Assembly (NCBI GenBank): GCA_935421135.1
Contig: OW285197.1
Coordinates: forward strand, 8,534,723-8,598,722
Origin: Bugulina stolonifera
Taxonomy: Eukaryota > Bryozoa > Gymnolaemata > Cheilostomatida > Bugulidae
DNA: 64,000 nucleotides
Direction: 5' to 3'
Shown: positions 7,640 through 64,000 of the stretch, in pieces
Layout of the letters: each line of letters starts with the position of its first letter
Position numbering within the stretch: the stretch's first letter is position 1
Program-made: the position numbers and the translations under genes
The notes under the pieces: generated by a model
The model's database searches: none
What the model saw: only the letters and a program-made list of their open reading frames with translations
Told to the model about the DNA's origin: nothing

Positions 7640-8184
7640 AGTAGTATAGTCAGTGCAGATCTACACAGACACCCGGCCCTTTCCGCGTCGTTTTAGCCCT
7701 AGATCCAAAAACTCCCCGGGCGGACGACCACCCCACCCGTCCTCTCGCCCCTCCTCTCCCCTAAACCTCACTCTATGTGCAAAGCCCTAGAACCTACTCC
7801 CCCCCATCGCGGGTGGGGTTTCAAAAACCTCATCGGCTGTTCCGCGGAACCCAGTCTAAAGAGCAAACCCCTCGCCCCGTCCCACGGCTCGGGCGAGGGG
7901 GCGCGCGCGTACGCGCGCGCCCCCCCCGCCCCGCGAACCCCACCCGTCCTCCCTCCACCCGTCCCCGCCCCTCCCCACCCCTCCCCACCCCAAACCCCTC
8001 CGCCTCGCCCTCCGCCTCGCGGCGGTTCTCGTTCGCGAGTCCAGCCGTGGCCCCACGCCGCCCTCCCCCCGCCCATCCCCCGCCCCTCCCCCGCCCTCCC
8101 GCCCCAACGACCCGTCGCGACCCTCGCGGGCGGACCGTCGGCTGGAGTAGGGTGAAGCGAAGGAAAATACGGGTTAGAGTAATG
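7640..8184 (+). repeat. E1 left terminal inverted repeat
   Basis: About 545 bp, nearly identical to the reverse complement of 16,739-17,282. It is extremely GC-rich, with C-runs and the alternating palindrome GCGCGCGCGTACGCGCGCGC near 7,900-7,922, a potential Z-DNA or cruciform site. The open frames in all directions here are compositional. Confidence 0.95.
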
Positions 8185-8600
8185 GTGTGTGATGTATTCT
8201 AGAATAGATGATATACGACTATGAAAATATGAGTCAGGGTAATGATACACGAGTTTGTTTTAATTTTCAATGCGTTTGAGAGTAATAATATAAAATCAAT
8301 CGATAAAAAACTTGATATGTGACTACGAAAAATATGAGTAAGGGTAATGATACGCGAGTTTGTTTTAATTTTCAATACGTTTGAGAGTAATAATATAAAA
8401 TCAAGCGATAAAAAACTTGATATACGACTATGAAAAATATGAGTAAGGGTAATGATACACGAGTTTGTTTTAATTTTCAATACGTTTGAGAGTAATAATA
8501 TAAAATCAATCGATAAAAACCGATATACGACTATGAAAAATATGAGTAAGGCTAACGATACACGAGTTTGAGAGTAATAATATAAAATCAATTGATAAGT
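8160..8600. repeat. 105-bp tandem repeat inside E1
   Basis: About four copies of a 105-bp AT-rich unit (GAGTAAGGGTAATGATAC at 8,231, 8,336, 8,441 and, shortened, 8,544). It starts at the inner TIR edge and ends at the 3' end of the minus-strand gene. The phase of the open frame across it is coincidental (105 is a multiple of 3). Confidence 0.85.
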
Positions 8601-8636
8601 AGACACGAATGAGTGTGAATGACAAAAGTTTTTGCC

Positions 8637-9951
8637 TCAAAACTGTGCAGTGGCGGGGAGGAGACGCTCGCCGAGGATGGAGTCTAGAATGGCACAATCG
8701 TAGAATGTTCTCCCGCTCTTGGAAGTCTTCTGTCCCTTGTACACCATCACGGAGGGGAGGAGCTCTTTCATCGAAACTGCCAGACGTCCCGGAAGGAAGA
8801 CTTCTCCCTTTTTTTCTTCGTTTCCAATCCGGCACTCGTAGGTGGCAATGGAGTTGCTCGCATTATCACCATCACCGCATCTTGGGACGTATGTGGGTCG
8901 GAGCGCGGTCACCACCAGCACAGAACCAACGGGGAAGGAAGATAGCGTTTGCACTCGAAAAAATTCTTCCAACTGGGCCAAGGTCTTCTTTCTCAAGTCA
9001 CCGGCCAGCTTTTTCATGGCTGCTCCTGGCAGGGAGCACACGCTCTCGATACGGTTGAATGTGTTTTGTCCTTTAGCGGTCTCCTGCTGTCCCAAGTACA
9101 CCATGATCCTAGGTGGAAGGGTAAGGTCCTTTAGCTCCTCTTCTTTGACATCCGCTAGCTTGGGCATGGCGTGACGAATGTTGGTGTGAAAGCTGATGCA
9201 ATGTCTCATCCCCTTGTCATCCACATAGCTTGCCCTGGCTAAGAATGCTTTTCCGAATGCCGTTTCAACCACCGAACCTCCACTCACTTCTAGCACAGTT
9301 CCTGGCTCTAGCTCCGACAGCTTCACCGTTGTCTGCAGAGAGCTCCTCTTCTCCGCTCCCATGCTCCTACAATAATGAAAGTGGTGTATATAGATCCGAC
9401 AAAGTGGTTAAACGGGAGAAAGATAGTACGGTAATTTATAGATATACGAATAGGGCTACTTACATTAGGGTTGCCGCCACTGCACGAGCTTTCTCCAGGC
9501 TTAGTCCCCCGCTCTTTTTCTTCCCCTTGCAAGGGGACTTGGTAGCTTTTTTTCCCTTCGTCGTCTCACCACCATCCATTTCTTCCGTAGCCGTATCGGC
9601 TCCGTGGCCATCATCATCATCATCTGATATTACAATCACCTGGGGTTTCTTTTTTTTCTTAGCACAGATTTCATCTCCTTTTGGGTTCTTCCTCTTCTTG
9701 GTTGTTGTGGTCTCGCCCCTATCCGAGGCCCGCTCCGGGGAGGACGGAGAGTCCGCCATGTTAGAAAGATCCTTTCGGGCAAGACTCCCCACTCCTATTA
9801 TTTTCCCCTTCTTCCGTGCCTCTTTTAACGCATCCACCTCTTCTTTCCTCTTCTGACTGCACTCTTCTTCTTCAATAATTCCATCCATTTGTGAGTCCGT
9901 TAAGCCCGCAAATAACTCTTCTTGGTTCTGGACTATGTTGTCAGTATCCAT
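8637..9951 (-). CDS. E1 duplicated-domain protein, candidate ssDNA-binding factor
   Basis: Two exons: 9,951-9,464 and 9,366-8,637, joined by a 97-bp intron (donor GTAAGTAG, acceptor ATTGTAG) with the frame kept, about 406 residues. The N-terminal ~165 residues are charged: acidic near the start, then KKRKNPKGD, KKKKKP and SDDDDD, looking like nuclear-localisation and linker sequence. The C-terminal ~240 residues hold two related modules. Each starts with a G(T/S)VL(E/V)V strand and ends with an MVY-GQ-K-G-TF pattern: MVYLGQQETAKGQNTF and MVYKGQKTSKSGRTF. This beta-rich pattern and GEVFLPGRL resemble OB-fold-like proteins that accompany DNA polymerase genes in Polinton-like elements; that assignment is inference. 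Its position opposite the polymerase across the iterons fits a role in element replication. Confidence 0.8.
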
Positions 9952-10004
9952 TGATAATGTACTATTGTAGTAGTGTTCCTGTACAGTAGTGATGTGCTGA
10001 ACTT

Positions 10005-10082
10005 TGAATGCTGAGACTGTGATCCCACTCTCCCTTTATACATCTGCTCATTTCTTGACTCCTCCCTTTTTATTATCCAATC
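10005..10082 (-). promoter_or_regulatory. E1 minus-strand promoter (CCAAT + TATA)
   Basis: On the minus strand, TGTATAAAGG lies at 10,042-10,033, about 85 bp before the ATG at 9,951, with an inverted CCAAT (ATTGG) about 30-40 bp further upstream. It adjoins the iteron array directly. Confidence 0.65.
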
Positions 10083-10850
10083 CCAATGTGTCCCGATGCA
10101 TCCCGATGTGAATCCGAAGCTTCCCGATGCATCCCGATGTGATTCCGAAGCTTCCCGATGCATCCCGATGTGAATCCGAAGCTTCCCGATGCATCCCGAT
10201 GTGATTCCGAAGCTTCCCGATGCATCCCGATGCATCCCGATGTGATTCCGAAGCTTCCCGATGCATCCCGATGTGAATCCGAAGCTTCCCGATGCATCCC
10301 GATGTGATTCCGAAGCTTCCCGATGCATCCCGATGTGATTCCGAAGCTTCCCGATGCATCCCGATGCATCCCGATGTGATTCCGAAGCTTCCCGATGCAT
10401 CCCGATGTGAATCCGAAGCTTCCCGATACATCCCGATGTGATTCCGAAGCTTCCCGATGCATCCCGATGTGATTCCGAAGCTTCCCGATGCATCCCGATG
10501 TGTCCCGATGTGTCAATTCACATCGGGGTGCATCGGGATGCATCGGGATGCATCGGGAAGCTTCGGAATCACATCGGGATGCATCGGGAAGCTTCGGATT
10601 CACATCGGGATGCATCGGGAAGCTTCGGAATCACATCGGGATGCATCGGGAAGCTTCGGATTCACATCGGGATGCATCGGGAAGCTTCGGAATCACATCG
10701 GGATGCATCGGGAAGCTTCGGATTCACATCGGGATGCATCGGGAAGCTTCGGATTCACATCGGGATGCATCGGGAAGCTTCGGAATCACATCGGGATGCA
10801 TCGGGAAGCTTCGGATTCACATCGGGATGCATCGGATTCACATCGGGGTG
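10083..10850. repeat. E1 central inverted array of 31-bp iterons
   Basis: Two arrays of the same 31-bp unit in opposite orientation. The left arm (about 10,083-10,512) reads CCCGATGTGAATCC-GAAGCTTCCCGATGCAT; the right arm (10,519-10,850) is its reverse complement. The axis is at 10,515/10,516 with a 6-nt loop (CCCGATGTG-TCAATT-CACATCGGG). Units alternate GTGAATCC and GTGATTCC versions. Each unit also contains the palindromes GATGCATC and GAAGCTTC. Since 31 is not a multiple of 3 and stops are absent, every frame is open; these frames are not genes. The array sits exactly between divergent promoters, suiting an origin or enhancer. Confidence 0.95.
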
Positions 10851-10879
10851 GTATTGCCAAGGGTGGGGAAATGGTTAGA

Positions 10880-10935
10880 CTCCGCCCACTGAATACTACT
10901 ATTTAAGGTATGAGTTTCTCACTCTAGCAGTATGA
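10880..10935 (+). promoter_or_regulatory. E1 polymerase promoter (GC box + TATA-like)
   Basis: A CCGCCCAC box followed by ACTATTTAAGG and, about 25 bp on, a pyrimidine-rich initiator-like TCTCACTCTAG. It faces the polymerase leader exons. Confidence 0.55.
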
Positions 10936-10965
10936 ACAATCAGCCTCTGGTCAACAGAGTGAGAG

Positions 10966-11307
10966 TAAACAGAGACAGCTACCTACTAGTCAGCACCTGA
11001 TCAGAGATGTCAACAAGTACAACATAAGGTTAGTGCTAAATAGGGTAATCGGCAGCAATTGTGAAGTGTCTATTGTATATAACGCTATTGAGCCAAAAAC
11101 AAAAAAAATTAACTTACACCCTACTACTATATATTTTTTATAGGGAGACTAAACAGAGACACCTACCTACTAGTCAGCACCTGATCAGAGATGTCAACAA
11201 GTAAAAAAGGTTAGTGCTAAATGAGGTAGTTGGTAACAATTGTGGATTGCTAATAGTAGTATGAGGTAAAAGAATAACTTACACCCTACTATTTTGTATT
11301 TTTATAG
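10966..11307 (+). repeat. Tandemly duplicated leader exon-intron cassette
   Basis: A ~184-bp unit is present twice (10,966-11,149 and 11,150 onward). Each copy has an exon with ATGTCAACAAGT, a GTTAGTGC donor and a TTTTATAG acceptor. In copy 1 the ATG (11,007) runs into TAA after six codons. In copy 2 the ATG (11,191) splices in frame into the polymerase. The two can act in series (a short upstream ORF) or as alternative first exons. Confidence 0.8.
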
Positions 11308-14300
11308 GGGGGGAGAGCTCTCGTCAGGCCGAGCACACTTGTCAACTATGCGGTCTGGTTCTCAAAACAGCGTTTTCTCTAGACAGGCACACGAAGAGAA
11401 TGCATGCACAGGCTCACCCACACAAGTGCCCGGTTTGTGGTGGATGTTTTGATGGGAGGAGAAAGCTAGGTCATCACATGAGACGATTTCATAGCGAGGC
11501 CAAGGCGGAAAAAGATGAGGGGGATGCAGAGAAGTTTGATGATGTTTTCTGGTCCAAACCTCCAACAGCTGAAGAGGGGGATGAGATGGGGGTGCTACTA
11601 GCCCGCTATTGGAGCTCGATCAGGTCCACAATACACTCTCGTCCTGTAGAAGACATTCTCAACGTTCGAGTGTGGAGAGGGGAATGTGAAGATGAAGGAG
11701 ATGAAGAGGTGTGGACTAAATTGAGAGCGATGTGGAAGAGAGTACCTTGTACTGTGAAGATTAACTGTAGCGCTGGAGTCATCCTCGAGCATAAGACCAG
11801 TGGAGAGTTGCGCTACTTTCACTCATCAAGCAACAATGCCGCGTTCTTCCCCAAGCCAAGACTGATCAGAGCAGAGAATGAGATGAGAGAGTTTTGCGAA
11901 TCTGTGCAGGAGCTCGACTTGAGAGAGAGGTCAGCACAAAGGAGACCGAACACCGCTTGGGCTTTACGTCACATTGCGAATCTGACATTCTACATCTATA
12001 AACTCCTAGAGATTGGCAAGGTGGGCGGTGTAGTGAGCAAACTCCCAGACTACATACTTAACAACCGACATGTGATAGCACTAGATGTAGACTTTTGGGC
12101 CAGAGGAGGTGCCCGTCCCTACCCAGACAAATTGTGTTTCTTTAGATGTTTGGCCATGATGTATGACTGTAACTGCGACCCAAAGAAGGGATGTTGCTGT
12201 CATCGCCCCTCTCAGACCACAACACATCGCTTGTTTAAACAATACATGAGACAATCTAGATCTTCTTCCCCACCCTCATCAACTTTGTCAGACTTTCCCG
12301 GGGTGGGCGCGAGTGATCTGCTGGCCTTGGAAGATCATTTTGACATATCTATAATAGTCTTCTGCCTAACTGATGAGGGGGTAGCTCCGATAGTTTGGTC
12401 ATCTGGGGCACGAAACAAAGCCCGTAAACTCTTTGTCAACATGTACGAAAAACACTTCAGCTGGATAAAGAATGTTGATTCGTTTGCCAGATGTTTCACC
12501 TGCAAGTTGTGCGATGGCGCTTTCACACGTTTGTCCAGCCTACGGCGACATAAGTGCTCGCCAGAGGAAGCATCGGTGTTTGTTTTCCCTGGTGGAACGT
12601 TTGGACCCCCGCCAACCATATTCACAAAACTCAAGCGAGTGGCGGGAATAGAGGTGGTGAACCCCGACCTCTTATACTACCCCTACTATATCACCTATGA
12701 TATTGAATGCTTCATGCCAAAAGACAACCTACAAACTAACACCTCCACAATGACTTTTAGTGCAAGACACGAGTTACTGAGCATATCTGTATGTTCTAAC
12801 GTCCCGGGGTTTGAGCAGGCCAAGTGCTTTGTGAGGAGTGTCGACAGCAAGGATGGAACGAAGTGCATTCGTCAATTCGTCCACTACATAGCAAAGATTG
12901 CTGACGTGGCAGGAGATTTGTTCGGAGAAAGATTCCGGGATGTACGCAAGCGACTCTCTACTTTCCTTGCGGATCGGGCGGATAGAGAAGAAGCCTTTGC
13001 TGACGAAAAGTTCTCTAACGTCTCGACTTACAGGGTGAAGTCCGGTCTCTCCGGATTAGAAAGAGAGTTAGAACAGCACATCTCCAGCGTTCCGGTGGTT
13101 GGTTTCAACTCACAAAAGTATGACCTAAATATACTAAAGGGACCTTTGCTTCGCTCTCTACAAGAGGAGGAGGGAGAAGATTTTGTCTTCATCGTTAAGC
13201 GTGTTAACAGTATGTCCTGCGTGGAGAGTAGACGTTTTAGGTTCCTTGACATATGCAACTTTATCGCACCGGGCTTCAACTACTCCAAATACTTGAAGGC
13301 ATTTGGCGTGTCAGAGAGTAAGGGATTCTTTCCTTACGACTGGGTAGATTCCCTGAGAAGGTTGGATTATTATGGACTCCCTCCCCGAGAGAGTTTTTTC
13401 AACTCGCTGACTCAGCAAGAATTGAGCGAGCAAGATTATCACCACTGTCAGGTCGTGTGGGAAAGAGAGAACATGGAAACGTTCAGGGATTTTCTCATCT
13501 GGTACAACAACCTCGATGTGGCCCCATTCATCGAGGCCATTGCACGTCAGAGCTCTATCTATCGACAAAAGGGTATTGACATGTTGAAATCCGCAATCTC
13601 GCTTCCAGGCTTGGCTATCAGATGGTTGTTTATGGAGGTGGAGGCCCGACCTTATGGCTACTCTCCTCCACAAGCCGCTCTTCCGCTGCATAGGTTAATG
13701 TCTCTCCGAGACGAACTTTGCAACTCGCAACCCATATGTCTGTTCGATGAGGAGAGCAAAAGTCTGTACCATACTCTTCGCGATAACCTCGTGGGAGGGC
13801 CAAGCATTATCTTTCACAGACATCATGAAGTTGGAGTGACCTCTATTCGAGAGAAGATGTATGGCACATCCGCAAAACCCTGTAGGTCCATTCTGGGAGT
13901 TGATGCCAACGCCCTCTACCTATACTGTATGATGGGGAATATGCCTACGGGTTATCCCAGGCGGAGGCTAGAGAGCCGAGGCTTTGCTCTAGAACCTATT
14001 AAAAAGTTCAGCAAAGTGGCGCATGGTTGGTTAGAGTTCCAATCGTGGAAGAGAGGAGAGGTCATCCTTCACCAACAGAATGGAGGAGAAATGAGGATAG
14101 GCTGTCACAACCTACCAGTGGATGGTTATAGCGAACAGAGTCGGACGGTGTACCAATTCCACGGTTGCTACTGGCATGGGCACGAGTGCGAGCTAGGAGG
14201 GAACGGAAAAGGTGTCAGAAACATGACGAATGAAGAGCTCCGGGTGGACACTGCAAGGAAAGAAGATTACATCAAGGCTCTAGGCTATAAGCTCATCACC

Positions 14301-15857
14301 ACTCGGCAGTGTGAGTGGGAAGCGCGAGTTCGTTCGGATGTAGAAGTTAGGACATTTCTCGCCATCTTCTTTTCTTCTCTCTATCCGGAGAGGGGTTACG
14401 TCAACCTCGATAAGATAATCAATAACATTCGTAGTGGAGAGTACTATGGTTTAGTGGAGTGTGACATTTCCGTACCCGAAGAGCTAAAAGCGAAGTTCTC
14501 TGAGATGGCACCTATTTTCAAGAATATAAACGTGGGAAGAGAACACCTTAGCGAACACATGCGCGCTTTTGCCGAACAGAACGGATTCTTGAAGAGACCT
14601 CAGCGAATGCTCGTGGGGAGTCTTTTTGGCGAGCGAATCACACTACTCTCCGATCTGGCTAGATGGTATCTAGATCAAGGTTTGATAATTACCAGGATCT
14701 ATCAGTTTGTTCACTTTATCCCACGAGCCATCTACAAAGACTTTGGTTCTTCGGTCTCAGACGCAAGAAGAGGTGGGGATGTGAACCCCGACCTGGCCCT
14801 CTTGGCCAGCACCAGCAAGCTCGTTGGGAATTCAGCCTACGGAAAGACCATAACAAATAAAGAGAAACATAAGACTGTCAAGTATGTGGAGACAGTAGAG
14901 GAGGCGGCTGTCAAAGTGAGGAGTAGGCACTTTTCTAGTCTAAACGAAGTTGATGAAAACTACTTTGAGATAGAGCTTCACAAGAAAAAGGCAAGTGTTG
15001 ACAATCTTTTTTTTTTATTTTGATTCTTGATTTGACGAAACTTTTTCTGAGTGGTAGGGTAAACTCTCTCTCTCTCTTTCTTTCTTTTAGATTCGAATGG
15101 ATGTTCCATCTGTCGTAGGATTCGTTATCCTCCAGAGAGCCAAGTTGAGAATGCTAGAATTCTACTACGACTTTATGGATAGGTAAGTAGCACTAGACTA
15201 TACAAAGATTTTATCAAATCCTTCTCTATTTATTCTTTGGTGTCAACCCCAACCCCCCCCCCTACAACCCGTCCGTTTTATTTTCACAGATTCGTCAGCA
15301 GAGAGGACTTTGAGTACGTAGAAATGGACACGGATAGCGCTTACATGGCTCTGAGTGCTCGTAGTATAGATGAGGTCATCCGAAAAGATAAAAAAGAAGA
15401 GTTCTACAGAGAATATGGTAGATGGTTTCCCAGACCCTTCTGCGATAGGCACAAGGAAGACTTTATCACGACCAAGGTGCTTGGCCAAGAGTGGGAGATG
15501 AGGGAATGTTGTGAGAAGGTGCAACGATACGAAACACGAACCCCCGGCCTGTTTAAGGAGGAGTTTCGGGGGGAGGGGGTCATCGCGCTCAACTCAAAAA
15601 CATACTTTTGCTGGTCCGCTGATGGTGATAGCAAGTATAGCAGCAAAGGACTAAACAAAAGAGGAAACGCCCTAACCAAAGAGAAGTTCCTCTCCGTGCT
15701 CAGGACAGGGGAGTCGGTGAGAGGGGACAATCGGGGTTTTATCAGAAGAGGAAACCAAACGTATAGCTACACCCAGCTAAAGACCGGACTCACCTACTTC
15801 TATGGTAAGCGGAAGGTTGCAGAAGACGGGGTGAGTACGAGTCCTATAGAATGCTAG
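11191..15857 (+). CDS. Protein-primed-type family B DNA polymerase of E1
   Basis: Four exons: 11,191-11,209; 11,308-14,990; 15,091-15,182; 15,290-15,857, with phases consistent throughout, about 1,453 residues. N terminus: two C2H2 fingers (C18/C21/H34/H39 and C47/C50/H63/H68). Near residues 250-425 a segment with CFFRCLAMM, HFSWIKNV and the finger C405-C408-H421-C423 resembles the OTU-like/Zn region known in Polinton polymerases. 3'-5' exonuclease: D471-x-E473 (TYDIECF), D612 (FNSQKYD), D743 (YNNLDVA). Polymerase: motif A D872 (VDANALYLY), motif B N1181-K1186 (NSAYGK), motif C D1278 and D1280 (EMDTDSAY). Between A and B, FHGCYWHGHEC near 955-965 matches the endonuclease-like insertion seen in related polymerases. 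The C terminus KRKVAEDGVSTSPIEC has the family's usual ending. All catalytic residues are present. Intron 2 is GC-AG. Confidence 0.93.
14991..15090 (+). other. GC-AG intron in the polymerase gene
   Basis: The donor is AAG|GCAAGT, the strong GC-type consensus. The acceptor is TTTCTTTTAG after a CT-rich tract. Splicing here is phase 0 and restores the path to motif C; without it the frame stops at 15,021. Confidence 0.75.
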
Positions 15858-16292
15858 TACTGATTTCTCGGAGATGAGACTACTTCATTCGATAAATTGG
15901 AGAGTAAACGAACAGTGCATCATAACCCTTGTACATATACCCGTATAATTTTTTTCACATTCACTCTCTATTGTAAGGGGTCTCCGTCCTCAAAACGGAG
16001 GGTTTACCGGTTGTAGCCTTAAAACCGAGCAATAAAACACTAGCTAATACATTAAAAACCATTTACCTCTCCAAACCAAAGGGGTAGACGATACTAGCGC
16101 AGCTTCCGCTCATACTCACCCCTTATCAGTTCACATTTCTTCTATTGTCTTCATTCGTAGGTGGGGGGTGACATCGCACGCGCACGATGCGCTCTCTCCC
16201 TATCGGAGTTTGCTACCCGGGGGAAAGTGGACGCGGTGGTCAAAGAAATTGGTGGCGAGTCAACGACATCATCGTAGAGGCGGGTCTATTTG

Positions 16293-16336
<44 letters not shown>

Positions 16337-16738
16337 CGATGGCGATGAGAAGACAAGCGTCCATCTATCCCGTTTATCTATTTCTATTTCTACCCCTCCG
16401 AGCGATGATGTCGTCGGCTAACCTCCTCGCGAAGTCTACGGTTTGAAGCGCGGAAGAGCCACCGCCTTCACTTTCTCTCGCCGCTCGTCACGGGGACGGG
16501 CGATTTCCCTAGGGGAGGGTCCGGGGAAAATGAGGGTTAAGACGCGAGTCTTTCATCGAAGGTCCGGGGGCGCTCGAACGGAGGAGCGCGCGAGTGCGGT
16601 GTCACCCCGACCAGTTCAGTCTCAACAGTCCCCGGCACAGTCCCCGGAAGCACCACCACCACCACTCGGTAAGTTTTTTATAGTAGTATAGTCAGCGTCG
16701 TAAACTCTGCACGGGCACTCCGCACGGGTGTAGCCTAT
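15858..16738 (+). other. E1 3' region with possible extra exon
   Basis: The polymerase stop is at 15,855-15,857. A GTGAGT donor just before it (15,831) and an acceptor at 16,160 (TTCGTAG) would allow an alternative C terminus of about 38 residues. A second donor (GTAAGT at 16,671) and a CTCCAG acceptor inside the right TIR (about 16,783) suggest transcripts run into the TIR. An arginine-rich, then proline-rich frame lies at 16,443-16,691. A GAT triplet microsatellite lies at 16,297-16,336. None is strong enough to call a gene. Confidence 0.35.
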
Positions 16739-17282
16739 CATTACTCTAACCCGTATTTTCCTTCGCTTCACCCTACTCCAGCCGACGGTCCGCCCGCGAG
16801 GGTCGCGACGGGTCGTTGGGGCGGGAGGGCGGGGGAGGGGCGGGGGATGGGCGGGGGGAGGGCGGCGGGGGGCCACGGCTGGACTCGCGAACGAGAACCG
16901 CCGCGAGGCGGAGGGCGAGGCGGAGGGGTTTGGGGTGGGGAGGGGTGGGGAGGGGCGGGGACGGGTGGAGGGAGGACGGGTGGGGTTCGCGGGGCGGGGG
17001 GGCGCGCGCGTACGCGCGCGCCCCCTCGCCCGAGCCGTGGGACGGGGCGAGGGGTTTGCTCTTTAGACTGGGTTCCGCGGAACAGCCGATGAGGTTTTTG
17101 AAACCCCACCCGCGATGGGGGGGAGTAGGTTCTAGGGCTTTGCACATAGAGTGAGGTTTAGGGGAGAGGAGGGGCGAGAGGACGGGTGGGGTGGTCGTCC
17201 GCCCGGGGAGTTTTTGGATCTAGGGCTAAAACGACGCGGAAAGGGCCGGGTGTCTGTGTAGATCTGCACTGACTATACTACT
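16739..17282 (-). repeat. E1 right terminal inverted repeat
   Basis: Inverted partner of 7,640-8,184, differing by a few single-base changes and indels. It ends CTGACTATACTACT, then the GTCACA duplication. Confidence 0.95.
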
Positions 17283-17288
17283 GTCACA

Positions 17289-28500: not shown

Positions 28501-28504
28501 CTTT

Positions 28505-42374: not shown

Positions 42375-42405
<31 letters not shown>

Positions 42406-48516: not shown

Positions 48517-48517
48517 T

Positions 48518-49766: not shown

Positions 49767-49783
49767 AGGCTGGCACTCGGGCC
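49739..49783 (+). promoter_or_regulatory. -1 ribosomal frameshift signal between gag and protease
   Basis: Slippery heptamer G-GGA-AAA (49,739-49,745) in the gag frame, a 6-nt spacer, then a perfect 8-bp stem GGCCCGAG (49,752-49,759) with CTCGGGCC (49,776-49,783). The -1 frame is open across the gag stop and joins the protease frame directly. Confidence 0.8.
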
Positions 49784-53375: not shown

Positions 53376-53379
53376 ATAC

Positions 53380-53700
53380 ATATTAAAATAGCTAGGATGT
53401 ACTAGTATAGCCAGTACAAGTGGTAATAAACTGTTTTGATACTTATTACACTACTAGTGGTATAACTACTCATATTGAAAAAAATCTCACCACATATAAA
53501 GCTTCTAAGCTCCGGTCACACAAATTGTAGTATAGACAGATCAGATCTCTACATACTTGCTCTCATGTTGAGAATCAAAACAGTTTAATACATAAGCTTA
53601 CAAAGTTTCTAAGCTCTAGTCATACCAAGGGAGTATTATATCACTACTAAAATAGAATTAGTCCCAATGTTAACTCAAATGAGTAAATTCATACTAAAAT
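53380..53700. other. E2 intron sequence
   Basis: Similar to 47,395-47,709 (repeated AGTATAGTCAGTACAAGTGG and GGTATAACTACTCATATTGA), so the LTR element landed within a local duplication. No gene. Confidence 0.6.
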
Positions 53701-53718
53701 ACATATTAAAATAAGTTT

Positions 53719-53870
53719 ACTCACCATATTAATTGTTGAGTGATGTTTATTCAGAGAAATTAGTAAATATCCACAGAGTTGCAAGTCTTTACTAGGTGGT
53801 TGAGTGGTAATGATAAAAATCCTCTCTCACGCTTGCTTTTATGGAAATCTCTGTCCAATCAGAAGTGATT
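53719..53870 (-). promoter_or_regulatory. E2 minus-strand promoter and leader exon
   Basis: On the minus strand: an inverted CCAAT (GATTGGACAG), then CCATAAAAGC as a TATA-like box at about 53,845, then a leader ending AATATG|GTGAGT (ATG 53,727-53,725). It abuts the iteron array. Confidence 0.55.
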
Positions 53871-53883
53871 TGCCTTTTTTTAG

Positions 53884-54850
53884 TCTGATTTATTGCATCC
53901 CGATGTGATTCGATGTAACCCGATGTAACCCGATGTAACCCGATGTAACCCGATGTAACCCGATGTGTTTTCGACCTCCCCCGATGTGTTTTCGACCTCC
54001 CCCGATGTGATTCGATGTGTCTCGATGTGTTTTCGACCTCCCCCGATGTGATTCGATGTGTCCCGATGTGTTTTCGACCTTCCCCGATGTGACCCGATGT
54101 AACCCGATGTAACCCGATGTAACCCGATGTGTTTTTTACCTCCCCCGATGTGTTTTCGACCTCCCCCGATGTGATTCGATGTGTCTCGATGTGTTTTTGA
54201 CCTTCCCCGATGTAACCCGATGTGTTTTTGACCTCCCCCGATGTGATTCGATGTGTCCCGATGTGTTTTCGACCTCCCCCGATGTGATTCGATGTGTTTT
54301 CGACCTCCCCCGATGTGATTCGATGTGTTTTCGACCTCCCCCGATGTGATTCAATGTGTTTTCGACCTCCCCCGATGTGATTCGATGTGTCCCGATGTGT
54401 TTTCGACCTCCCCCGATGTGTTTTCGACCTCCCCCGATGTGATTCGATGTGTTTTCGACCTCCCCCGATGTGATTCGATGTGTTTTCGACCTCCCCCGAT
54501 GTGATTCGATGTGTTTTCGACCTCCCCCGACGTGATTCGATGTGTTTTCGGCCTCCCCCGATGTGATTCGATGTGTTTTCGACCTCCTCCGATGTGTTTT
54601 CGACCTCCCCCGATGTGATTCGATGTGTTTTCGACCTCCCCCGATGTGATTCGATGTGTCCCGATGTGTTTTCGACCTCCCCCGATGTGATTCGATGTGT
54701 CCCGATGTGTTTTCGACCTCCCCCGATGTGATTCGATGTGTCCCGATGTGTTTTCGACCTCTCCCGATGTGTTTTCGACCTTTCCCGATGTGTTTCGATG
54801 TTTCCCTATGTGTTTTCGATCTTTCCCGATGTGATTCGATGCACTCTGAT
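53884..54850. repeat. E2 central 31-bp iteron array
   Basis: About 31 copies of a 31-bp unit CCCGATGTGATTCGATGTGT-TTTCGACCTCC, with edge variants (CCCGATGTAAC). It has the same period and same core (CCCGATGTGAWTC) as the E1 array, and the same place between divergent promoters, but in a single orientation. Long frames through it are repeat artefacts. Confidence 0.95.
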
Positions 54851-54879
54851 GTGTTTCCAATGCACTCCAATGTATATGC

Positions 54880-54965
54880 TGTTAGCCAATCAGCTTTATT
54901 TGTATCTTTTTATTCACTATATAAAGAGAGGTGGAAACAGTAGTTTAGTTAACTCTTTCTAGCTC
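54880..54965 (+). promoter_or_regulatory. E2 plus-strand promoter (CCAAT + TATA)
   Basis: AGCCAATCAGC at about 54,885, then CACTATATAAAGAG at 54,915-54,928, about 90 bp before the ankyrin gene ATG. Confidence 0.75.
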
Positions 54966-55011
54966 CAGTCTGTTCTTAATAGAAATTAAAGAAGGTTAGC
55001 ACACAAATAGC

Positions 55012-56456
55012 ATGGAAAGTGGATATGGATCAAGCGAGTATAGCAACAAGCTAATGACTCCTATAAACCAAGAGCTGATGAAGGTAACAGTGGAAAGATG
55101 TACAGAACAAAGCAAGTATGAGAATAAAGACTTATTTGAGGGGGTGTCTGAGCTCTTTCTCCAAAAAAGCTTACCTCTAGACTGGCAGAAATGGGATCCT
55201 TTAACCGATATTCGTAATAAGCTTAGCACACAGTTACTAGAAGAAATTCGTTCTATCTTTTGGGAGCAAGATGGAAAGGATGAAGAGTTGTAAGTTATAC
55301 ATACTTCCAACTATTTTTTTTTTTTTTGTTTCGTATTGTCTTTTATGATCAAAATAAAATATGATAGACAAATTTCCCATATAACTACCTCTCAACTATG
55401 TGAAAAACAAATATCATGCTAAATGATGTAGTGAGGTACTAGAAGCAGCCCGAGATAGAGATGAGAGAGCCATTGCACTCGCGGTATTTGTTGCGAGGAG
55501 TCACAAACAACTGAATACAAAGAATGCGAATCGGCAGACATTACTTCACCTAACTGTACAGTCTTATTGTTCGGATTCACTAATTCGTCTCATCATCACA
55601 AGGGGAGCGGATGGAGCAATAGCCGATGCTTGGGGTTAGTGTTTTATAGCACCAATGTTTGCATGCATTGCTTGTTAAAAATATAGTATTGCAAAACTTG
55701 TAACAATTCGATACTTATCTATATTGCTAATGTTTATTTGGAAGGTGACACCCCCCTTCACATTGCTGCACGTCTGGGTAGAGCTAAGGTTATTCATGCT
55801 CTAACCACAAGTTTGACCAGAGCAGAAGTAAAGCATCCATACTTCAGAGTTCCTTACAAATCACTTCCCCAAGACAATGTACAGAGCTACAATCATGATG
55901 GAAGGAGTGTAGTCCACCTCATTGTTGAAACAGCGCATAGCAGCAAGCATAGAGAGGCACTAAAAGTACTAAAAAAAAATACTCGGGCTGACTTAGATAT
56001 GAGGGTAAGTGAATACATTACAGTGGAATAAAAGTAGAGTAGATCGAATTGATAAGTTAGATGGGGAGTTTAATTCTATTCTCTTGTTTGATATTATAGC
56101 GAATGGGAGATGGATATGCCCCATCTCACATTGCCATAGAGAATGAAGACTACGAATGTCTACATACATGTCTAAGATTGGGAGCTGATTCTGAAGTTCG
56201 TAACTACAAAAGTGAAACTCCTCAACAACTAGCTCACCTCTACAAATCAGCAGATATGGTAAGGGACCAACAACATAAAGAAGTATAGATTTCTTGCTTT
56301 GTCCACCTTGAGTGATATTCGTCTGAGTAAAAAACTAAAATCATCTTGTAGGTAAGACTGTGTCAAGAGTTTGGAGCTGGAGCATATCAATTAGAGTATG
56401 CTGAGACCGAAGTCGTAAACATTATAGCTCCTACGACTTCTGATGAAGATGAGTAA
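55012..56456 (+). CDS. IkB-like ankyrin-repeat protein carried by E2
   Basis: Five exons: 55,012-55,289; 55,432-55,634; 55,745-56,004; 56,100-56,258; 56,352-56,456. All introns are GT-AG with matching phases; 334 residues, close to IkB size. The N terminus MESGYGSSEYS resembles the IkB phosphodegron DSGxxS, with Glu for Asp. Ankyrin repeats run from about residue 95: TLLHLTVQSYCSDSLIRLII, GDTPLHIAARLGRAKVIHAL, GRSVVHLIVETAHSSKHREAL, GYAPSHIAIENEDYECL followed by LRLGADSEVRN. The C terminus is acidic (TSDEDE). IkB proteins hold NF-kB in the cytoplasm; an element-borne version could damp host NF-kB signalling, but that is inference. It could also be a general ankyrin adaptor. The gene is intact. 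Confidence 0.75.
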
Positions 56457-57029
56457 TAAGTACCTAAACCCCTCTTTTATTTATTCTATTGCTACTATTG
56501 TGAAGTTTATTTAATATATTACATAATGCTGACTTAACACATGCACACAACCTTTTATTTATTCTATTGCTACCATTGTGCGCAGCTCAGGCGACAGTTG
56601 CGGGGACATTCGTCTGCACGCACACCCGACAAGTGGGGACCAGTTTGACTTGCGGGGTCCGGCCCGGTCCCCACAACTGCAACAGGCTCAGTTGAAAGGA
56701 AATTTCATTCTGAGCAGATAGATACCTAGTTTTGGGTCGGTCCCCACAATGACCATTTTTGATGCACACGCTTTTGCACAAATATTGGGGAGATAACAAC
56801 AGTGCGCAGACGGTGTGTGCATAGGCATGTGCATGGCCTGGACCCCACACTGTATGTCTTGAGTCAAGCAAAAACGCGGACCCCACTTTAATGACGGTTG
56901 GCAGGTGGCGGTCCCCACTTTGATAATCTCCTGCAGGTCTCTCCATTGCGCATGGAAATGCAGTTGCGGGTACCGCTTGACAGGAAGTGCTCTTGTATGT
57001 TAGAAGGAAAAAAACATCGTATTGACTGT

Positions 57030-60000
57030 GTGCATCTGTTACTTTCCATAAAAGTCATTGTGGGGACCGTTAACCGTTTATTGATATTATATTGAATGTG
57101 TGCATGTGACTCGTTATGTAAAGGTTCTTGTGGGGACCGCCTACTGTATAATGATATTATATTGACTGCGTGCATGTGATGCTTTCAATAATGGTTATTG
57201 TGGGGACCATGAACAGTATAACTACATTGTATATTGGGACCTCTGTGTGCATGTGATACATTGTGTTATAGTTCTTGTGGGGACCGCTTACTGTGTAGCT
57301 ATGTTATATTGATTAAGGTGCATATGTTGCTATCAAAGAAGAGTTATTGTGGGGACCGCTAACACTTTCAGCCATGAGGACGAGTATACTCGCAGCTATG
57401 TTTTTCACAGGGCCCTGAGGAGGAGCATACTCGCAGTTGCAGTCTTTTATTCATAACAGCAAAACTATTGGGTTTGTGGTATAAGTAAAGCAATATTTAG
57501 TGAGAGCATACTTTTTTGCGTTGACAGATAATCTCCAGGATTCTAGTGCTAATACAAATGATTTAATTGGGTGATGAAAACAACTACATTAAATGTCTTC
57601 GGGAACTAAACTTCAGACCTAGGTCGATCTACAAAAATATTTTCGGGCACACACCTGTCACAGGGTCGTAAAGTCCTCATTTTCGCGCGAAGAAATCAGG
57701 TGTGCCGATGAGCTAAGAATGGTTTCGTCCGGCCAACCAAAATCGCAGGCCAATAGCCCTTCAGAGCTGAGCTGGACGGCTATCTTGTGATTTTTATTTG
57801 TGAAAACACCTATAGTATATCCTCTGTTTAGAGTAAAAATGGCCTCCTTCAATAGGTTTGATGCTGTCGGTTTGATTGATGAAATTATTGGCTGTGAGAG
57901 GCCAGAACTTGGTTCAAACACTCATCCAAGTATGTTTAGCTAATTTTGGCATGATGTTAACTAAATTTTGATAGGAAATAGAGTACTTGCTTGGTAAATA
58001 ATACTATTTTAGTATTGAGTTTTTAGCAGAATGATAAAAATAGGTTTCGCCTATCTCGCTGTCATCTAATGGCTATGCATGATGGCTCAGGTTTGTTTCT
58101 ATTAATAGTTCTGCAGGTGTTAAGCTTCATTTTGATACATAATTTTTATAGGTACAGCGAGGATTAATGTGATTAAAATGTTGATGGAAAGTAGGAAAAA
58201 TGGCCAAGACCACATAGTCTGCCACATAGGAACGCGCTGTGGACTCATGATAGTATTAACCGTCTAACGACATTATACAGACTGTGTGCAAGTGATACTT
58301 TCGATAAAAGTACTTGTGGGGTCCACAAACCGTCTAACTATATTATAATTATTGACTTTGTGAATATGACACTTTCTATAAGAGCACTCGTGGGGACCGC
58401 TACCTGTCAAACTATATTATATTGACTGTGTGCATGTGACACTTTCTATTAGAACACCTGTGGGGACCGCTAACTATATTATTTTGACTGTGTGCATGTG
58501 TCACTTTCTATAAGAGCACTTGTGGGGTCCGCTACCTGTCAAACTATATTATATTGACTGTGTGCATGTGACACTTTCTATAAGAGTACTTGTGGGGTCC
58601 GCTACCTGTCAAACTATATAATATTGACTGTGTGCATGTGACACTTTCTATAAGAGTACTTGTGGGGACTGCTACCTGTCCAACTATATTATATTGACTG
58701 TGTGCATGTGACACTTTCTATTAGAACACCTGTGGGGACCACTAACTATATTATATTGACTGTGTGCATGTGTCACTTTCTATAAGAGCACTTGTGGGGT
58801 CCGCTAACTATATTATATTGACTGTGTGCATGTGTCACTTTCTATAAGAGCACTTGTGGGGACCGCTAACTATATTATATTGACTGTGTGCATGTGTCAC
58901 TTTCTATAAGAGCACTTGTGGGGTCCGCTACCTGTCAAACTATATTATATTGACGGTGTGCATGTGTAACCTTCTATAAGAGTACTTGTGGGGTCCGCTA
59001 CCTGTCAAACTATATTATATTGACTGTGTGCATGTGACACTTTCTATAAGAGTACTTGTGGGGTCCGCTACCTGTCAAACTATATTATATTGACTGTGTG
59101 CATGTGACACTTTCTATTAGGACACCTGTGGGGACCGCTAACTATATTATATTGACTGTGTGCATGTGTCACTTTCTATAAGAGCACTTGTGGGGTCCGC
59201 TACCTGTCAAACTGCATCATATTGACTGTGTGCATGTGACACTTTCTATAACAGCACTTGTGGGGCCCGCTACCTGTCAAACTATATAATATTGACTGTG
59301 TACATGTGTCACTTTCTAAAAGAGTACTTGTGGGGACCGCTAGCAGTCCAAATATGTTATATTGGCTGCGTGTGTGTGATACTCCTATTGATGGTCATTG
59401 TGGGGACCACCATCCGACTAAAGTTATTGTATTCGCTGTGTGCATGACATGGTTTCTATGGCAGTACTTGTGAGGTCCGCTAGCAGTCTAACTATATTAT
59501 ATTGAGTGTGTGCATGTGTAACTTTCTATAAAAGCGCTTGTGGGGTCCGCTACCTGTCTAACTATATTATATTGACTGTGTGCATGTGACACTTTCTATA
59601 AGAGCACTTGTGGGGCCCGCTACCTATCAAACTATATTATATCGACTGTGTGCATGTGTAACTTTCTATAAAAGCACTTGTGGGGTCCGCTACCTGTCAA
59701 ACTATATTATATTGACTGTGTGCATGTGACACTTTCTATAAGAGCACCTGTGGGGTCCGCTACCTGTCAAACTATACTATATTGACTGTGTGCATGTGAC
59801 ACTTTCTATAAGAGCACTTGTGGGGACCGCTAACCGTCTAACTATATAATATTGACTGTGTACATGTGTCACTTTCTAAAAGAGTACTTGTGGGGACCGC
59901 TAGCAGTCCAACTATGTTATATTGGCTGCGTGTGTGTGATACTCCTATTGATGGTCATTGTGGGGACCACCATCCGACTAAAGTTATTGTATTCGCTGTG

Positions 60001-61330
60001 TGCATGACATGGTTTCTATGGCAGTACTTGTGAGGTCCGCTAGCAGTCTAACTATATTATATTGAGTGTGTGCATGTGTAACTTTCTATAAAAGCGCTTG
60101 TGGGGTCCGCTACCTGTCTAACTATATTATATTGGCTGTGTGCGTGTGACACATTCTATTAGAGTACTTGTGGGGTCCGCTAACTATAATATTATATGGA
60201 CTGTGTGCATGTGACACTTTCTATAAGAGCACTTGTGGGGTCCGCTACCTGTCAAACTATATTATATTAACTGTGTGCGTGTGACACTTTCTATTAGAGT
60301 ACTTGTGGGGTCCGCTAACTATAATATTATATGGACTTTGTGCATGGGTAACTTTCTATAAGAGCCCTTTTGGGGTCCGCTACCTGTCAAACTATATTAT
60401 ATTGACTGTGTGCGTGTATAACTTTCTATAAGAGCACTTGTGGGGTCCGCTACCTGTCAACCTATATTATATTGACTGTGTGCATGTGTAACTTTCTATA
60501 AGAGTACTTGTGGGGACCACTAGTACTCTAACTATATTATATTGACTGTGTGCATGTGATACTTTCTATAAGAGTACTTGCGGGGACCGCTAGCAGTCTA
60601 ACTATATTATATTGAGTGTGTGCATGTGTAACTTTCTATAAAAACGCTTGTGGGGTCCGCTACCTGTCTAACTATATTATATTGACTGTGTGCATGTGAC
60701 ACTTTCTATAAGAGCACTTGTGGGGCCCGCTACCTATCAAACTATATTATATCGACTGTGTGCATGTGTAACTTTCTATAAGAGCACTTGTGGGGTCCGC
60801 TGCCTGTCAAACTATATTATATTGACTGTGTGCATGTGACACTTTCTATAAGAGCACTTGTGGGGTCTGCTACCTGTCAAACTATACTATATTGACTGTG
60901 TGCATGTGACACTTTCTATAAGAGCACTTGTGGGGACCGCTAACCATCTAACTATATAATATTGACTGTGTACATGTGTCACTTTCTAAAAGAGTACTTG
61001 TGGGGACCGCTAGCAGTCCAACTATGTTATATTGGCTGCGTGTGTGTGATACTCCTATTGATGGTCATTGTGGGGACCACCATCCGACTAAAGTTATTCT
61101 ATTCGCTGTGTGCATGACATGATTTCTATGGCAGTACTTGTGGGGTCCGCTAGCAGTCTAACTATATTATATTGACTGTGTGCATGTGATACTTTCTATA
61201 AGAGTACTTGCGGGGACCGCTAGCAGCCTAACTATATTATATTGAGTGTGTGCATGTGATACTCTCTATCAGAGCATTTGTGGGGACCACTCACAGTCCA
61301 GTTATGTCTTATTGACTGTATGCTTAGAAT
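57030..61330. repeat. 70-bp satellite (TGTGGGGTCCGC) with higher-order structure
   Basis: Diffuse copies at 57,030-57,365, then about 45 tandem copies at 58,260-61,330. Typical unit ~70 bp: TGTGGGGTCCGCTACCTGTC, AAACTATATTATATTGACTG, TGTGCATGTGACACTTTCTA, TAAGAGCACT. A shorter ~60-bp variant lacks the CCTGTCAA part. A distinctive block recurs at about 59,288, 59,856 and 60,968, showing multi-unit duplication. Confidence 0.95.
57839..58267 (+). pseudogene. Two-exon ORF, possibly a captured host gene start
   Basis: Exon 57,839-57,929 (AAAATGGCC start context, donor GTATGT) and exon 58,152-58,267 (acceptor TTTTTATAG) keep one frame for 68 residues (MASFNRFDAVGLIDEIIG...). The second exon runs into the satellite edge and stops there. 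A CT-rich acceptor (CTCTTGCAG, 61,423) past the satellite could mark a further exon. Product unknown; probably a fragment. Confidence 0.35.
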
Positions 61331-61568
61331 ACTTTATTTAGTACAATCATGTAGTTATTGCAGGATCGTTTAGTGGTGAGTCATGTTATATATTTATATG
61401 ATGTTCTCTTTCTCTTGCAGCATCTGGAGAGTGTTTAAGTTTTAGCATAACTTGTGTTTCATGTACGGAAGTTAGATTAGGCTTGAAAGTGGTCATGATA
61501 TATCTAAATAAATTAGATGATATTGCTCACACCTATACATTTTTTGTACGTGTATATGTCTATTAGTG

Positions 61569-62100
61569 ATAATGTATTTTTAGGCAAAGAAATTTAGGCC
61601 TACTTTTGAGCGGCAGGAGACTTGTTTCAAGTCCATTAAAATGCCAGCCCCCAACTGTGGTTTGAATCCGAGGCGCCTATGATAGGTAGTAGCCTAGCAC
61701 AGTGATTTGAAACAAGTCTCTGACCGCTCAAAAATAACTTTCCTTGCCTAAAAATACATAATAATATATAAAAGATGGCCAAACACCCTAACATCTTATA
61801 TATATACATGTACATAACAAGGTGGCCGTAGTAAGAGTGGTGTATTGAGTGAAGTCCGCTCAGGGCATGTCTATTGCTCACTGGTGAAGCTTCCTTTTTA
61901 AGGCTGTTTAGGTGGTGTAGTGGTGGCATGTTCTGTTCACTGCGCTGGCGATTCGGTTCCGTGGAGGCACCAGTCAGAGACTAAATTTTTATTGATTTTA
62001 AAAAGCTATCTCCGAATGCTCAAAGATAAAATTTTTTCCGTAAAAATGCATCATTATGTGCAGAAATGGCCACCCCCCCCCCCCAACACCCTATCCTTGT
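61569..62100. repeat. Two related short elements, one hairpin-shaped
   Basis: 61,569-61,762 has inverted ends (TGTATTTTTAGGCAA) and internal GAGACTTGTTTCAA with its inverse, forming a hairpin. It contains a B-box-like GGTTTGAATCC. 61,905-62,095 shares its 3' portion (GCTCAAA-ATAA, TAAAAATGCAT, ATGGCCA, AACACCCTA) and starts with tRNA-like GGTGTAGTGGT / CGGTTCC. Probably SINE-derived. Confidence 0.45.
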
Positions 62101-63432
62101 GACGTAGTTTCATTAAGGTCATGCTTATAACAATTAAAGGGAAGTGGGATAGGAGAGTGCCTATCCTTTTAACAAGAGGTCATGGGAAGAGAGCTTATAT
62201 TGACCCTCTGGGAAACAGCCAGAATACCCACCAAAAATCCCTAAGTCATTTCCTTACCTAGCAACGCCATGCCATGCAAGGCTCATAGGCATTGAAGCAA
62301 ATTGCAGAAAACTTCTCACAAATCCAAAGGCCAGAGGGCATTCCTAGTACTAAAATTCCAAAATATGTTGCCACAATATCCCTGACAGGTGTGTAGACAA
62401 AAAAAATTTGCCACTGTTCGAATATTTTAGTTAGAACCAGGACGTCCTGAAAACATTTGAACCCCAATTCTCAACCCGAAAACCCAAACTAATGTTTTTG
62501 AAACACCTTGTTTTTAACATTTATGGAATGCTTCTTTACCAGCAAAAGCTTTACAATGGGGTGAATTTTGCTCTGTCAAAACATAAACAAGCGCTACGGT
62601 TGTTGCAAAGTTGCTCGAGGCAAAGACTTTTCTCCCTATGGCCATGCAATGGTTAACAATACCTTGCCAAGACTTTATATTACCGTTGCAACCTTATGTT
62701 TGGTGAGCAACACAGCTTTATGCTAAGTGATACAAGTGAAAAGGCTTGCCATAAGACTTGACATAACACTACATGTGTGTATATTTCTTCCCACTTGAAG
62801 GCTCCAGTCTCTGGCAACTACCATGGCTGACAAGGATTCTTCATCCAATTCAACAATATTTTTCACCAACATCCAAGAAAGAGCTTTTTGAAAGACCACA
62901 ATTTGGTCTTATACATGTAGATAGGCTGGATTGCTGTTCTAGACCTTTCCAGGGTGCCTTGGCGGCGCCCTGGACCCCTGGCATGTTTACTTTGCCATCC
63001 CTCTGGCAATTTTCTAGAAACCCCTCTGAATTGTCTTCTCTTGGCGTGTGCATGACTACTTTTTGGGGACCATTTTGCACAAACACAGCTATGTGTGCAA
63101 CTAGCGGACCCCGCTTTTATTCAGAAATGCAGATGGTTATGCGGTCCCCACTTTGTGGACTTCTAGCAGATGACACTTTTTGCACGGTGCCCGCAACTGT
63201 TATCTCATCTGCAAAATATTATGAAAGTGCGTTGCCTGGACCCCACAACTGTTTTGAAGTATTGTGGCCACAATTACCAAAATGAAATTATATGAAAATG
63301 GTTTTCTTGGTTGGTGAGAAGTTGTCTTTTCAATGAGCCAATAAACAAGCTCCTAGCCCTTCTAGAAGTGGTGGTCCCCGGAATACGCACTTGGGTCAGA
63401 TGTCCCCGCAACTGTCGTCTCACCCGTATAGG
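62101..63432. other. Unique part and right edge of the nested element
   Basis: No convincing gene. The 170-codon frame at 62,773-63,285 lacks domain features. From about 63,060 onward GGGGACC/GGTCCCC motifs mirror those at 56,640-56,910. Confidence 0.4.
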
Positions 63433-64000
63433 TGAAAAGTTTATCTAATGTATAATATACACTGTCTTAACACATGTACACAGACTTTCTTGCTAATAAC
63501 AGATATGACATACTCTTTTAAATATGTGTCTTTTATTCTTTCAATTGTGTTTTAACACGTGTACACAATCTTTTATTCATTCTATTGTCACCATTGCGGA
63601 AAGTTTATTTAATGTATTATATATGCTGACTTAACACATGCACACGTTTCTTTATTGTCAATACAATGTATATCATAGAACCAACCCTTCTTCCCATCAG
63701 TGTATTTATAGCCAAGACTTTACACATTTCTTTATTAACAATGCGATGCACATCATAAACCATCCCTTCCGTAGTACTTCTTCTTATCGCTAATGAGAGT
63801 TATAGGCGAAGAAGCGCAGCCGAATTCGCTCGTTTAGATCACAAGCTTTTCGAGTGGAGGGCTCGGGAGAAGCGGCGGGCCGCTGCCTAGTCGCTTGGCC
63901 CGGTGGATACGGGGCACCGGCGTCGCCTCCACGTGTACGGTCGGCGCCGCACGCAACGTGGGCGGACGCGGCTTGACCGCCTCAAACGATTGGTCGTTCG

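What the first reader, a model, noticed from the sequence alone, without database searches (positions are those of the whole stretch)
7640..64000. E1 and E2: a family of compact Polinton-ended elements with shared iteron core and different cargo
Two elements 25 kb apart share the terminus AGTAGTATAGTCAGTGCA (about 34 bp similar in all), long TIRs, a central array of 31-bp repeats built on CCCGATGTGAWTC, divergent CCAAT/TATA promoters, intron-bearing genes, and a core size near 9.5 kb. Their genes are unrelated: polymerase plus duplicated-domain protein in E1, Ser/Thr-rich protein plus IkB-like protein in E2. This suggests a modular or multipartite family using common ends and iterons, with replication genes and host-manipulating genes on separate units. 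Full Polintons normally keep integrase, ATPase and capsid genes together.
Basis: partly seen in the sequence, partly recalled or inferred. Interest (0 to 1): 0.88.

Follow-up and report, generated by a model that had tools for sequence, protein, structure and literature searches.

The report
Polinton virus split into three elements
In a bryozoan genome, a virus-like mobile element of the Polinton kind, which normally keeps all its genes together, appears to be divided over three separate kinds of roughly 10-kb elements with matching ends: one with the DNA-copying enzyme, one with the shell and insertion enzymes, and one with possible host-manipulating genes.

Summary

Of 46 terminus pairs over 20 Mb of chromosome 1, 16 hold only the A marker, 15 only C, 8 only B, 7 none, 0 two. 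Exact markers genome-wide: A 235, C 187, B 119. The same genome holds an unsplit 17.3-kb relative with class C gene order and the polymerase sitting where class C lacks it; no iterons were found in its fetched parts.

Best reading: a Polinton genome divided over three separately integrating elements that complement each other in trans, probably a multipartite dsDNA virus. Virions, expression and mobilisation are untested.

The parts
7634..7639 (.). left TSD of E1 (GTCACA)
7640..17282 (.). E1: complete class-A element, 9643 bp
   Evidence: termini, TIR and TSD
7640..8184 (+). E1 left TIR (GC-rich), pairs with 16739-17282
   Evidence: I1, I2
8637..9407 (-). 256-aa protein with two similar halves (by eye; possible OB-like/SSB-like); no Pfam or PDB relative; single-sequence model unusable (pLDDT 33)
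9460..10035 (-). 191-aa frame next to the iterons; class C keeps about 100-112 aa of it
9783..10992 (.). iteron block shared by classes A and C (30-mers common to E1, 8 sampled A copies and 4 sampled C copies)
10091..10847 (.). E1 iteron array (core CCCGATGTGAWTC, two inverted halves)
11265..15023 (+). polymerase reading frame, exon piece 1 (PF03175, C2H2, Vsr-like insert; exonuclease and palm motifs A and B and a vOTU-like stretch by eye)
15183..15857 (+). polymerase exon piece 2 (motif C DTDS)
16739..17282 (-). E1 right TIR
17283..17288 (.). right TSD of E1 (GTCACA)
42001..42006 (.). left TSD of E2 (GACAAC)
42007..64000 (.). E2: class-B element; runs to window position 64557, outside the window
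42007..43148 (+). E2 left TIR with subterminal repeats; inside the window 42560-43148 pairs with 63454-64000
43149..43962 (.). solo LTR inserted in E2 (approximate ends)
44353..45789 (-). 478-aa Ser/Thr-rich protein piece, holds the class-B marker
47708..53392 (+). LTR retroelement inserted in E2 (aspartyl-protease-like frame; approximate ends)
53899..54867 (.). E2 iteron array on the same core
55000..56456 (+). ankyrin/IkB-like gene in pieces (55000-55293 with N-terminal ESGYGS, 55427-55639, 55687-56031, 56100-56288, 56352-56456)
   Evidence: that the pieces are exons of one gene is inferred by eye; ankyrin hits only in the third and, weakly, the fourth piece
56580..63432 (.). insertion of about 6.85 kb in E2, absent at this place from the class-B copies compared; carries the 70-bp tandem array

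Best explanation
E1 and E2 are two of three kinds of integrated elements that together carry one Polinton (Maverick/adintovirus-type) gene set, divided by function. Class A (E1) supplies a Polinton-type family B DNA polymerase and a small two-domain protein. Class C supplies integrase, packaging ATPase, double-jelly-roll capsid protein, penton-like protein and protease. Class B (E2) supplies a Ser/Thr-rich protein and an ankyrin/IkB-like protein, probably acting on the host. Shown: the division of genes, the common terminus, the common iterons, the common 6-bp target rule and the near-identity of many copies. Inferred: the class C integrase inserts all three; the class A polymerase copies all three from their matching termini (protein-primed, by family), with the iterons as shared origin, enhancer or packaging signal; class C proteins package them; and the lineage arose from a monopartite Polinton, like the 17.3-kb one in the same genome, when the polymerase gene moved to its own element.
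Against: No evidence here of virions, transcription, excision or free linear DNA. Protease and penton were not recognised by Pfam (Peptidase_C5 E = 0.14; penton none). Three of the ten class C frames (C_N450, C_145, C_195) have no hit at E 0.01 in the fetched parts of the monopartite relative. Need for class B is not shown. Unsplit Polintons in the genome could supply functions in trans, and their number is a lower bound: that search reported only about two of the 235 or more class A polymerases, whose scores lie at the cut-off, and group Y scores little higher. Some sampled copies carry a stop: 1 of 4 MCPs (L023), three class A polymerase pieces (L026, L033, L043), 1 of 4 C_N450 (L048). Pairs without any marker: 7 of 46, 14 of 95. 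B and C ends are alike beyond the first 18 bases, while A ends differ from both.
Confidence: 0.8

Rival explanations
1. A transposon consortium without virions: A, B and C transpose in trans using A's polymerase and C's integrase, and the capsid genes are no longer used for particles.
For: Hundreds of copies in one genome suggest copying within the germline; no particle evidence.
Against: In the 4 sampled C copies integrase, ATPase and penton-like frames are open in 4 and the MCP in 3, and the MCP keeps a full double jelly roll. But the copies are too alike (99.6-99.7%) for open frames to prove selection on the capsid genes.
Confidence: 0.3
2. Class C (and B) are satellites that borrow the polymerase of unsplit Polintons, and class A is an independent linear-plasmid-like element that shares only the ends.
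For: The genome holds unsplit Polintons (groups X and Y); linear plasmids with pPolB and no capsid module are known (PMC11071308, passages).
Against: About 8 unsplit polymerase places were seen (lower bound) against 187 C markers; group Y shares only AGTAGTAT of the terminus and has no iterons in the fetched pieces, while A and C share the full 18-bp terminus and an iteron block.
Confidence: 0.08
3. Class B is not a genome segment but an optional passenger with captured cargo, mobilised by A + C, which alone are the virus (bipartite).
For: No replication or morphogenesis gene was found in B; its marker is the rarest (119 versus 235 and 187); a palindromic satellite without a coding frame of note suggests that cargo-free elements are mobilised too.
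Against: No stop in the Ser/Thr-rich and ankyrin pieces in 7 of 7 sampled copies each, though one ankyrin piece (L041) matches only in part; B shares TIR sequence with C and keeps its own iteron array.
Confidence: 0.35
4. Assembly or decay artefact: unsplit elements broken into parts.
For: None found.
Against: 20 of 20 fetched elements have both termini and perfect TSDs, sizes are narrow per class, and marker copies lie on many contigs.
Confidence: 0.01

Closest known systems
Polinton/Maverick (polintoviruses, adintoviruses; PMC4028283 and PMC11071308, passages)
   Same: family B polymerase of this type, rve integrase (here with chromodomain), packaging ATPase, DJR capsid protein; long TIRs, 6-bp TSD and AG..CT ends (these three recalled as Polinton traits)
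   Different: Genes lie on three separate elements of about 9-11 kb instead of one of 15-20 kb; each element has a CCCGATG iteron array; a third element carries ankyrin/IkB-like cargo
Bidnaviruses (Bombyx mori bidensovirus; Vesanto virus; PMC4061559 and PMC8363768, passages)
   Same: multipartite DNA viruses with Polinton-derived PolB and similar terminal repeats on the segments
   Different: Those have ssDNA genomes, a parvovirus-related capsid and a superfamily 3 helicase; here the capsid is a double jelly roll with packaging ATPase and integrase
Cytoplasmic linear plasmids (PMC11071308, passages)
   Same: class A alone resembles them: polymerase without capsid module
   Different: class A is chromosomally integrated with TSDs and shares ends and iterons with a capsid-bearing partner
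Polydnaviriforms (recalled; seen only in listings)
   Same: dsDNA divided over units, some with ankyrin/IkB-like genes (recalled)
   Different: domesticated, circular, without replication genes on the packaged units (recalled)

Membership tests
Polinton/Maverick | Polinton-type family B polymerase (PF03175) | tested here: met
   class A: 27.1 bits, cutoff 25.8; motif strings located (reading recalled); no polymerase hit in class C halves
Polinton/Maverick | protein priming of replication | not testable with these tools
   inferred from family and linear TIR structure; terminal protein and TPR parts not tested
Polinton/Maverick | rve-family integrase | tested here: met
   class C only: rve 2e-11 plus Chromo 1.2e-6
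Polinton/Maverick | FtsK/A32-like packaging ATPase | tested here: met
   class C: Pox_A32 1.4e-6, 28.4 bits, cutoff 22.8
Polinton/Maverick | adenovirus-like cysteine protease | tested here: inconclusive
   Peptidase_C5 E = 0.14, ASFV S273R E = 0.065; homolog after the MCP in the monopartite relative
Polinton/Maverick | double-jelly-roll major capsid protein | tested here: met
Polinton/Maverick | single-jelly-roll penton near the MCP | tested here: inconclusive
   237-aa piece, one gene before the MCP; no Pfam hit; homolog in the monopartite relative; fold not predicted
Polinton/Maverick | TIRs and 6-bp TSD | tested here: met
   E1, E2 and 20 of 20 fetched elements for TSDs; TIRs
Polinton/Maverick | the gene set together in one 15-20 kb element | tested here: not met
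   0 of 46 and 0 of 95 pairs carry two class markers; met by the relative at C1:22072416-22089691
Bidnaviridae | parvovirus-related capsid protein | tested here: not met
   capsid is a double jelly roll
Bidnaviridae | ssDNA segments packed in separate capsids | not testable with these tools
   needs particles
Cytoplasmic linear plasmid | kept outside the chromosomes | tested here: not met
   sampled class A copies are integrated with 6-bp TSDs; a free form in addition is not excluded

The most novel reading that the evidence does not exclude
A multipartite integrating double-stranded DNA virus of animals. A Polinton gave up its single genome for three separately packaged and separately inserted segments held together by a shared terminus and newly gained iterons, and in this host it apparently became far more numerous than its unsplit relatives (whose count here is a lower bound).
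Probability: 0.55. Interest if true: 0.95.

Novelty: new variant of a known kind. Interest (0 to 1): 0.9.

Why it matters
Multipartite genomes are best known in RNA and small single-stranded DNA viruses, and why they persist is disputed. Here one animal genome preserves the split form (over a hundred copies per module) beside an unsplit relative with the same gene order. So the steps of splitting (export of the polymerase, gain of iterons, gain of a cargo element, a common integration rule) can be compared directly. It also offers a natural case of mobile elements that seem to complement each other in trans, with satellites that hint at which cis sequences suffice.

Tried and rejected
Rejected: that E2 runs into quite different ends; that the terminus is a chance repeat (reversed-pattern control 0). 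A fourth coding class was not seen among the sampled copies (L071 lies in a pair with the B marker; L014 has no coding frame of note), but is not excluded among unsampled or unmarked ones.

Led nowhere: MCP and polymerase relatives in viral contigs (none; three weak matches that fall in the Vsr-like stretch); PHROGs (integrase-like transposases, otherwise weak rows); PDB by sequence for the MCP profile (two weak unrelated rows) and for the two-domain protein (nothing below E 0.6); structure of the two-domain protein (pLDDT 33, not used). The genome search with the MCP protein did not complete, so MCP copies were not counted on their own; the integrase 28-mer stands for class C. No held paper describing a multipartite or split Polinton was seen in the listings, several of which show only part of the papers that matched; most subscription papers and preprints are missing from that library, and the adintovirus founding paper (PMC8502044) is not held. 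Viral fold library: best row a Cotesia bracovirus-labelled protein with low TM-score, the others mainly capsid proteins.

Dropped before counts: 8 of the first 100 terminus places were unpaired; from the A-type listing 4 of 100 places (three reverse ends alone, one last place), from the B/C-type listing 6 of 100 (one unpaired, five on C3). Markers on chromosomes 1 and 2 outside the 95 pairs: 3 A, 3 B, 6 C; why was not followed up for each. One search counted 38 A because it added one polymerase protein match; by the 28-mer alone it is 37. A1 holds 35 of the 40 MCP relatives; A2 holds 20 of the 120 listed polymerase relatives.
Full report
Setting. The window is C11:8534723-8598722 of a 235-Mb genome. 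Contig sizes (C1 36,811,656; C11 14,312,582) match Table 2 of the Bugulina stolonifera genome note (36.81 and 14.31 Mb; PMC10213821, passages), and the nearest named relatives of the host fucosyltransferase at 4577-5863 are from the bryozoan Watersipora. So the host is taken to be this cheilostome bryozoan.

Check of the observation. E1 is 9643 bp with TSD GTCACA. E2 starts at 42007 and ends at window position 64557, 557 bases beyond the window, with TSD GACAAC. Both begin AGTAGTATAGTCAGTGCA and end with its reverse complement. The 18-mer occurs 678 + 693 times in the genome, its reversed control 0 times. Two kinds of continuation exist: A-type GATCTRCACAGACACC (298 + 299) and B/C-type CTTCTAGACAGACAC (271 + 277), together 1145 of 1371. 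E2 is 22.55 kb because of three insertions: a solo LTR, an LTR element of about 5.7 kb whose two LTRs are each 99.5-99.8% like the solo LTR, and an insertion of about 6.85 kb. The uninterrupted sites were seen in class-B copies among the 8 halves looked at (L020, L021, L024, L025, L034, L035, L040, L041).

The division is strict in what was examined. Exact 28-mers for A polymerase, B Ser/Thr-rich protein and C integrase, mapped onto the 46 pairs, give 16 A, 15 C, 8 B, 7 none, 0 with two. On the pairs readable from the end-type listings of chromosomes 1 and 2, with all three markers tested: A-type ends 37 A, 11 none; B/C-type ends 21 B, 23 C, 3 none; 0 of 95 with two. The two sets share 43 pairs and make 98 together. 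Twelve markers on these chromosomes lie outside the 95 pairs. The nearest A and C markers are 11.8 kb apart. Whole-genome exact counts are A 235, B 119 (a few double within one element), C 187.

Common cis elements. Each of 19 fetched coding elements has one iteron array with 12-27 copies of the 13-base core in the half that holds it; the palindromic satellite has up to 11 in two pieces that overlap by 101 bases. A and C share an iteron block (86-89% over about 1.46-1.48 kb in the two C copies compared; shared 30-mers over E1 9783-10992). B and C share TIR sequence. TSDs from A, B, C and the satellite follow N-A-Y-R-T-N (21 of 22 pyrimidine at position 3, 21 of 22 purine at position 4; no background model run), as one integrase for all would predict.

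Activity and age. In a 1.5-kb polymerase block, 5 of 5 other A1 copies are 99.9-100% like E1 (one over 1.07 kb only) and four A2 copies 95.8-96.2%; C blocks are 99.6-99.7% alike, B 99.0-100%. In the protein search all 111 scored polymerase matches (of 382 candidates) are 99-100% identical without stops inside. E1 against one A2 copy gives dN/dS 0.13-0.18 in the polymerase pieces; dS varies from 0.025 to 0.34 along the element, which suggests recombination. A few sampled copies have single stops. L014/L015 is a large inverted repeat (99.9% over 1816 bp, then about 92% over 2.5 kb) of A ends, B-type subterminal repeats and iterons; its L014 half has no coding frame of note. I read it as a non-coding satellite, and as the kind of product expected from linear replication (inference).

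Unsplit relatives in the same genome. A PF03175 search (11 matches of 14 scored candidates) showed two other polymerase groups. It reported only about two class A polymerases (one beside the class A marker at C4:2176615, one at C10:9729434 with the same score), so its counts are lower bounds. Group X (6 places at about 95-101 bits, one of them in two pieces with 45-51 bits) looks like an ordinary Polinton: at C1 the fetched pieces beside the polymerase hold an integrase relative (E 1.6e-16), a P-loop frame (weak ATPase match, E 0.025) and a frame that I take by eye for a capsid protein; the class C capsid profile does not match it. Group Y (C1:22080281; C7:13185903 not fetched) is a closer relative of the split system. 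The element C1:22072416-22089691 (17,276 bp) starts AGTAGTAT, has a 215-bp TIR at 98.6% and TSD GCAGTG. It carries, in class C order, ATPase (37-38%), polymerase (43-49% to class A pieces), a C_134 homolog (40%), integrase (40%), penton-like protein (29-49% in two pieces), C_147 (44%), MCP (33%; class C family profile 9.8e-137) and protease (36%). About 3 kb of its polymerase region, C1:22079501-22082499, was not fetched; the PF03175 match lies there in an open frame of 1415 aa. C_N450, C_145, C_195, A_OB and A_191 had no hit at E 0.01 in the fetched pieces, and no CCCGATG was found in them. So class C looks like this element with the polymerase taken out from between ATPase and C_134, and class A like the polymerase on its own.

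Mechanism. Shown: modules, terminus, iterons, target rule, unsplit relative. Inferred: class C integrase inserts all classes; class A polymerase, by its family of the protein-primed type, copies linear forms from the shared termini; class C proteins package them; class B, with a Ser/Thr-rich protein and an ankyrin gene whose N-terminus ESGYGS recalls the IkB degron (recalled motif), acts on the host. The sizes of coding copies without inserts (about 9-11 kb) and of some unmarked pairs (about 8 kb) would fit a packaging limit, but this is only a suggestion.

Comparison. In PMC4028283 (passages) Polintons are 15-20 kb with this gene set; PMC11071308 (passages) describes pPolBs with TP-vOTU-EXO-PALM order; bidnaviruses (PMC4061559, PMC8363768, passages) are multipartite with Polinton-derived PolB but a parvovirus-related capsid. 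Bidnavirus segments are also discussed in PMC11071296 (passages). Literature searches showed no split Polinton (listings, several of them partial). I therefore describe this as a split, multipartite derivative of Polintons and not as an ordinary Polinton, since the one-element feature was tested and not met.

Noticed in passing
C1:22072416-22089691 (L083, L081, L082, L084 in pieces): Unsplit 17.3-kb Polinton related to the split system, no iterons in the fetched pieces; second polymerase match at C7:13185903 not fetched.
   Followed up: partly
C1 about 12.825-12.838 Mb (L077-L080): A different, ordinary-looking Polinton (group X, 6 polymerase places) with polymerase, integrase and, by eye, ATPase and capsid frames together; a tubulin-like frame lies in L077 (by eye, not searched).
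   Followed up: partly
L014/L015 (C1:11555876-11564273): Palindromic, apparently non-coding satellite of 8.4 kb with both ends from class A; several unmarked A-type pairs of 7.3-8.5 kb may be of the same kind (mostly not fetched).
   Followed up: partly
C1:14505550-14505589: Two termini facing each other within 40 bp, possibly a remnant of end joining.
   Followed up: no
window 11265-15023: The polymerase holds a Vsr-endonuclease-like stretch between palm motifs A and B; several database relatives are named after it.
   Followed up: no
window 56580-63432: Insertion of about 6.85 kb in E2 with a 3-kb array of 70-bp units and similar, imperfect inverted sequences near its ends; family unknown.
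   Followed up: no
window 1549-1831, 18220-18703, 28990-30006, 40292-41282: Arrays built on a similar unit of about 29 bp; two of them lie in repeated contexts about 11.3 kb apart.
   Followed up: no
class A copies: Two polymerase lineages A1 and A2 (about 96% nt) beside a much more uniform class C in the small sample; could be reassortment-like.
   Followed up: partly
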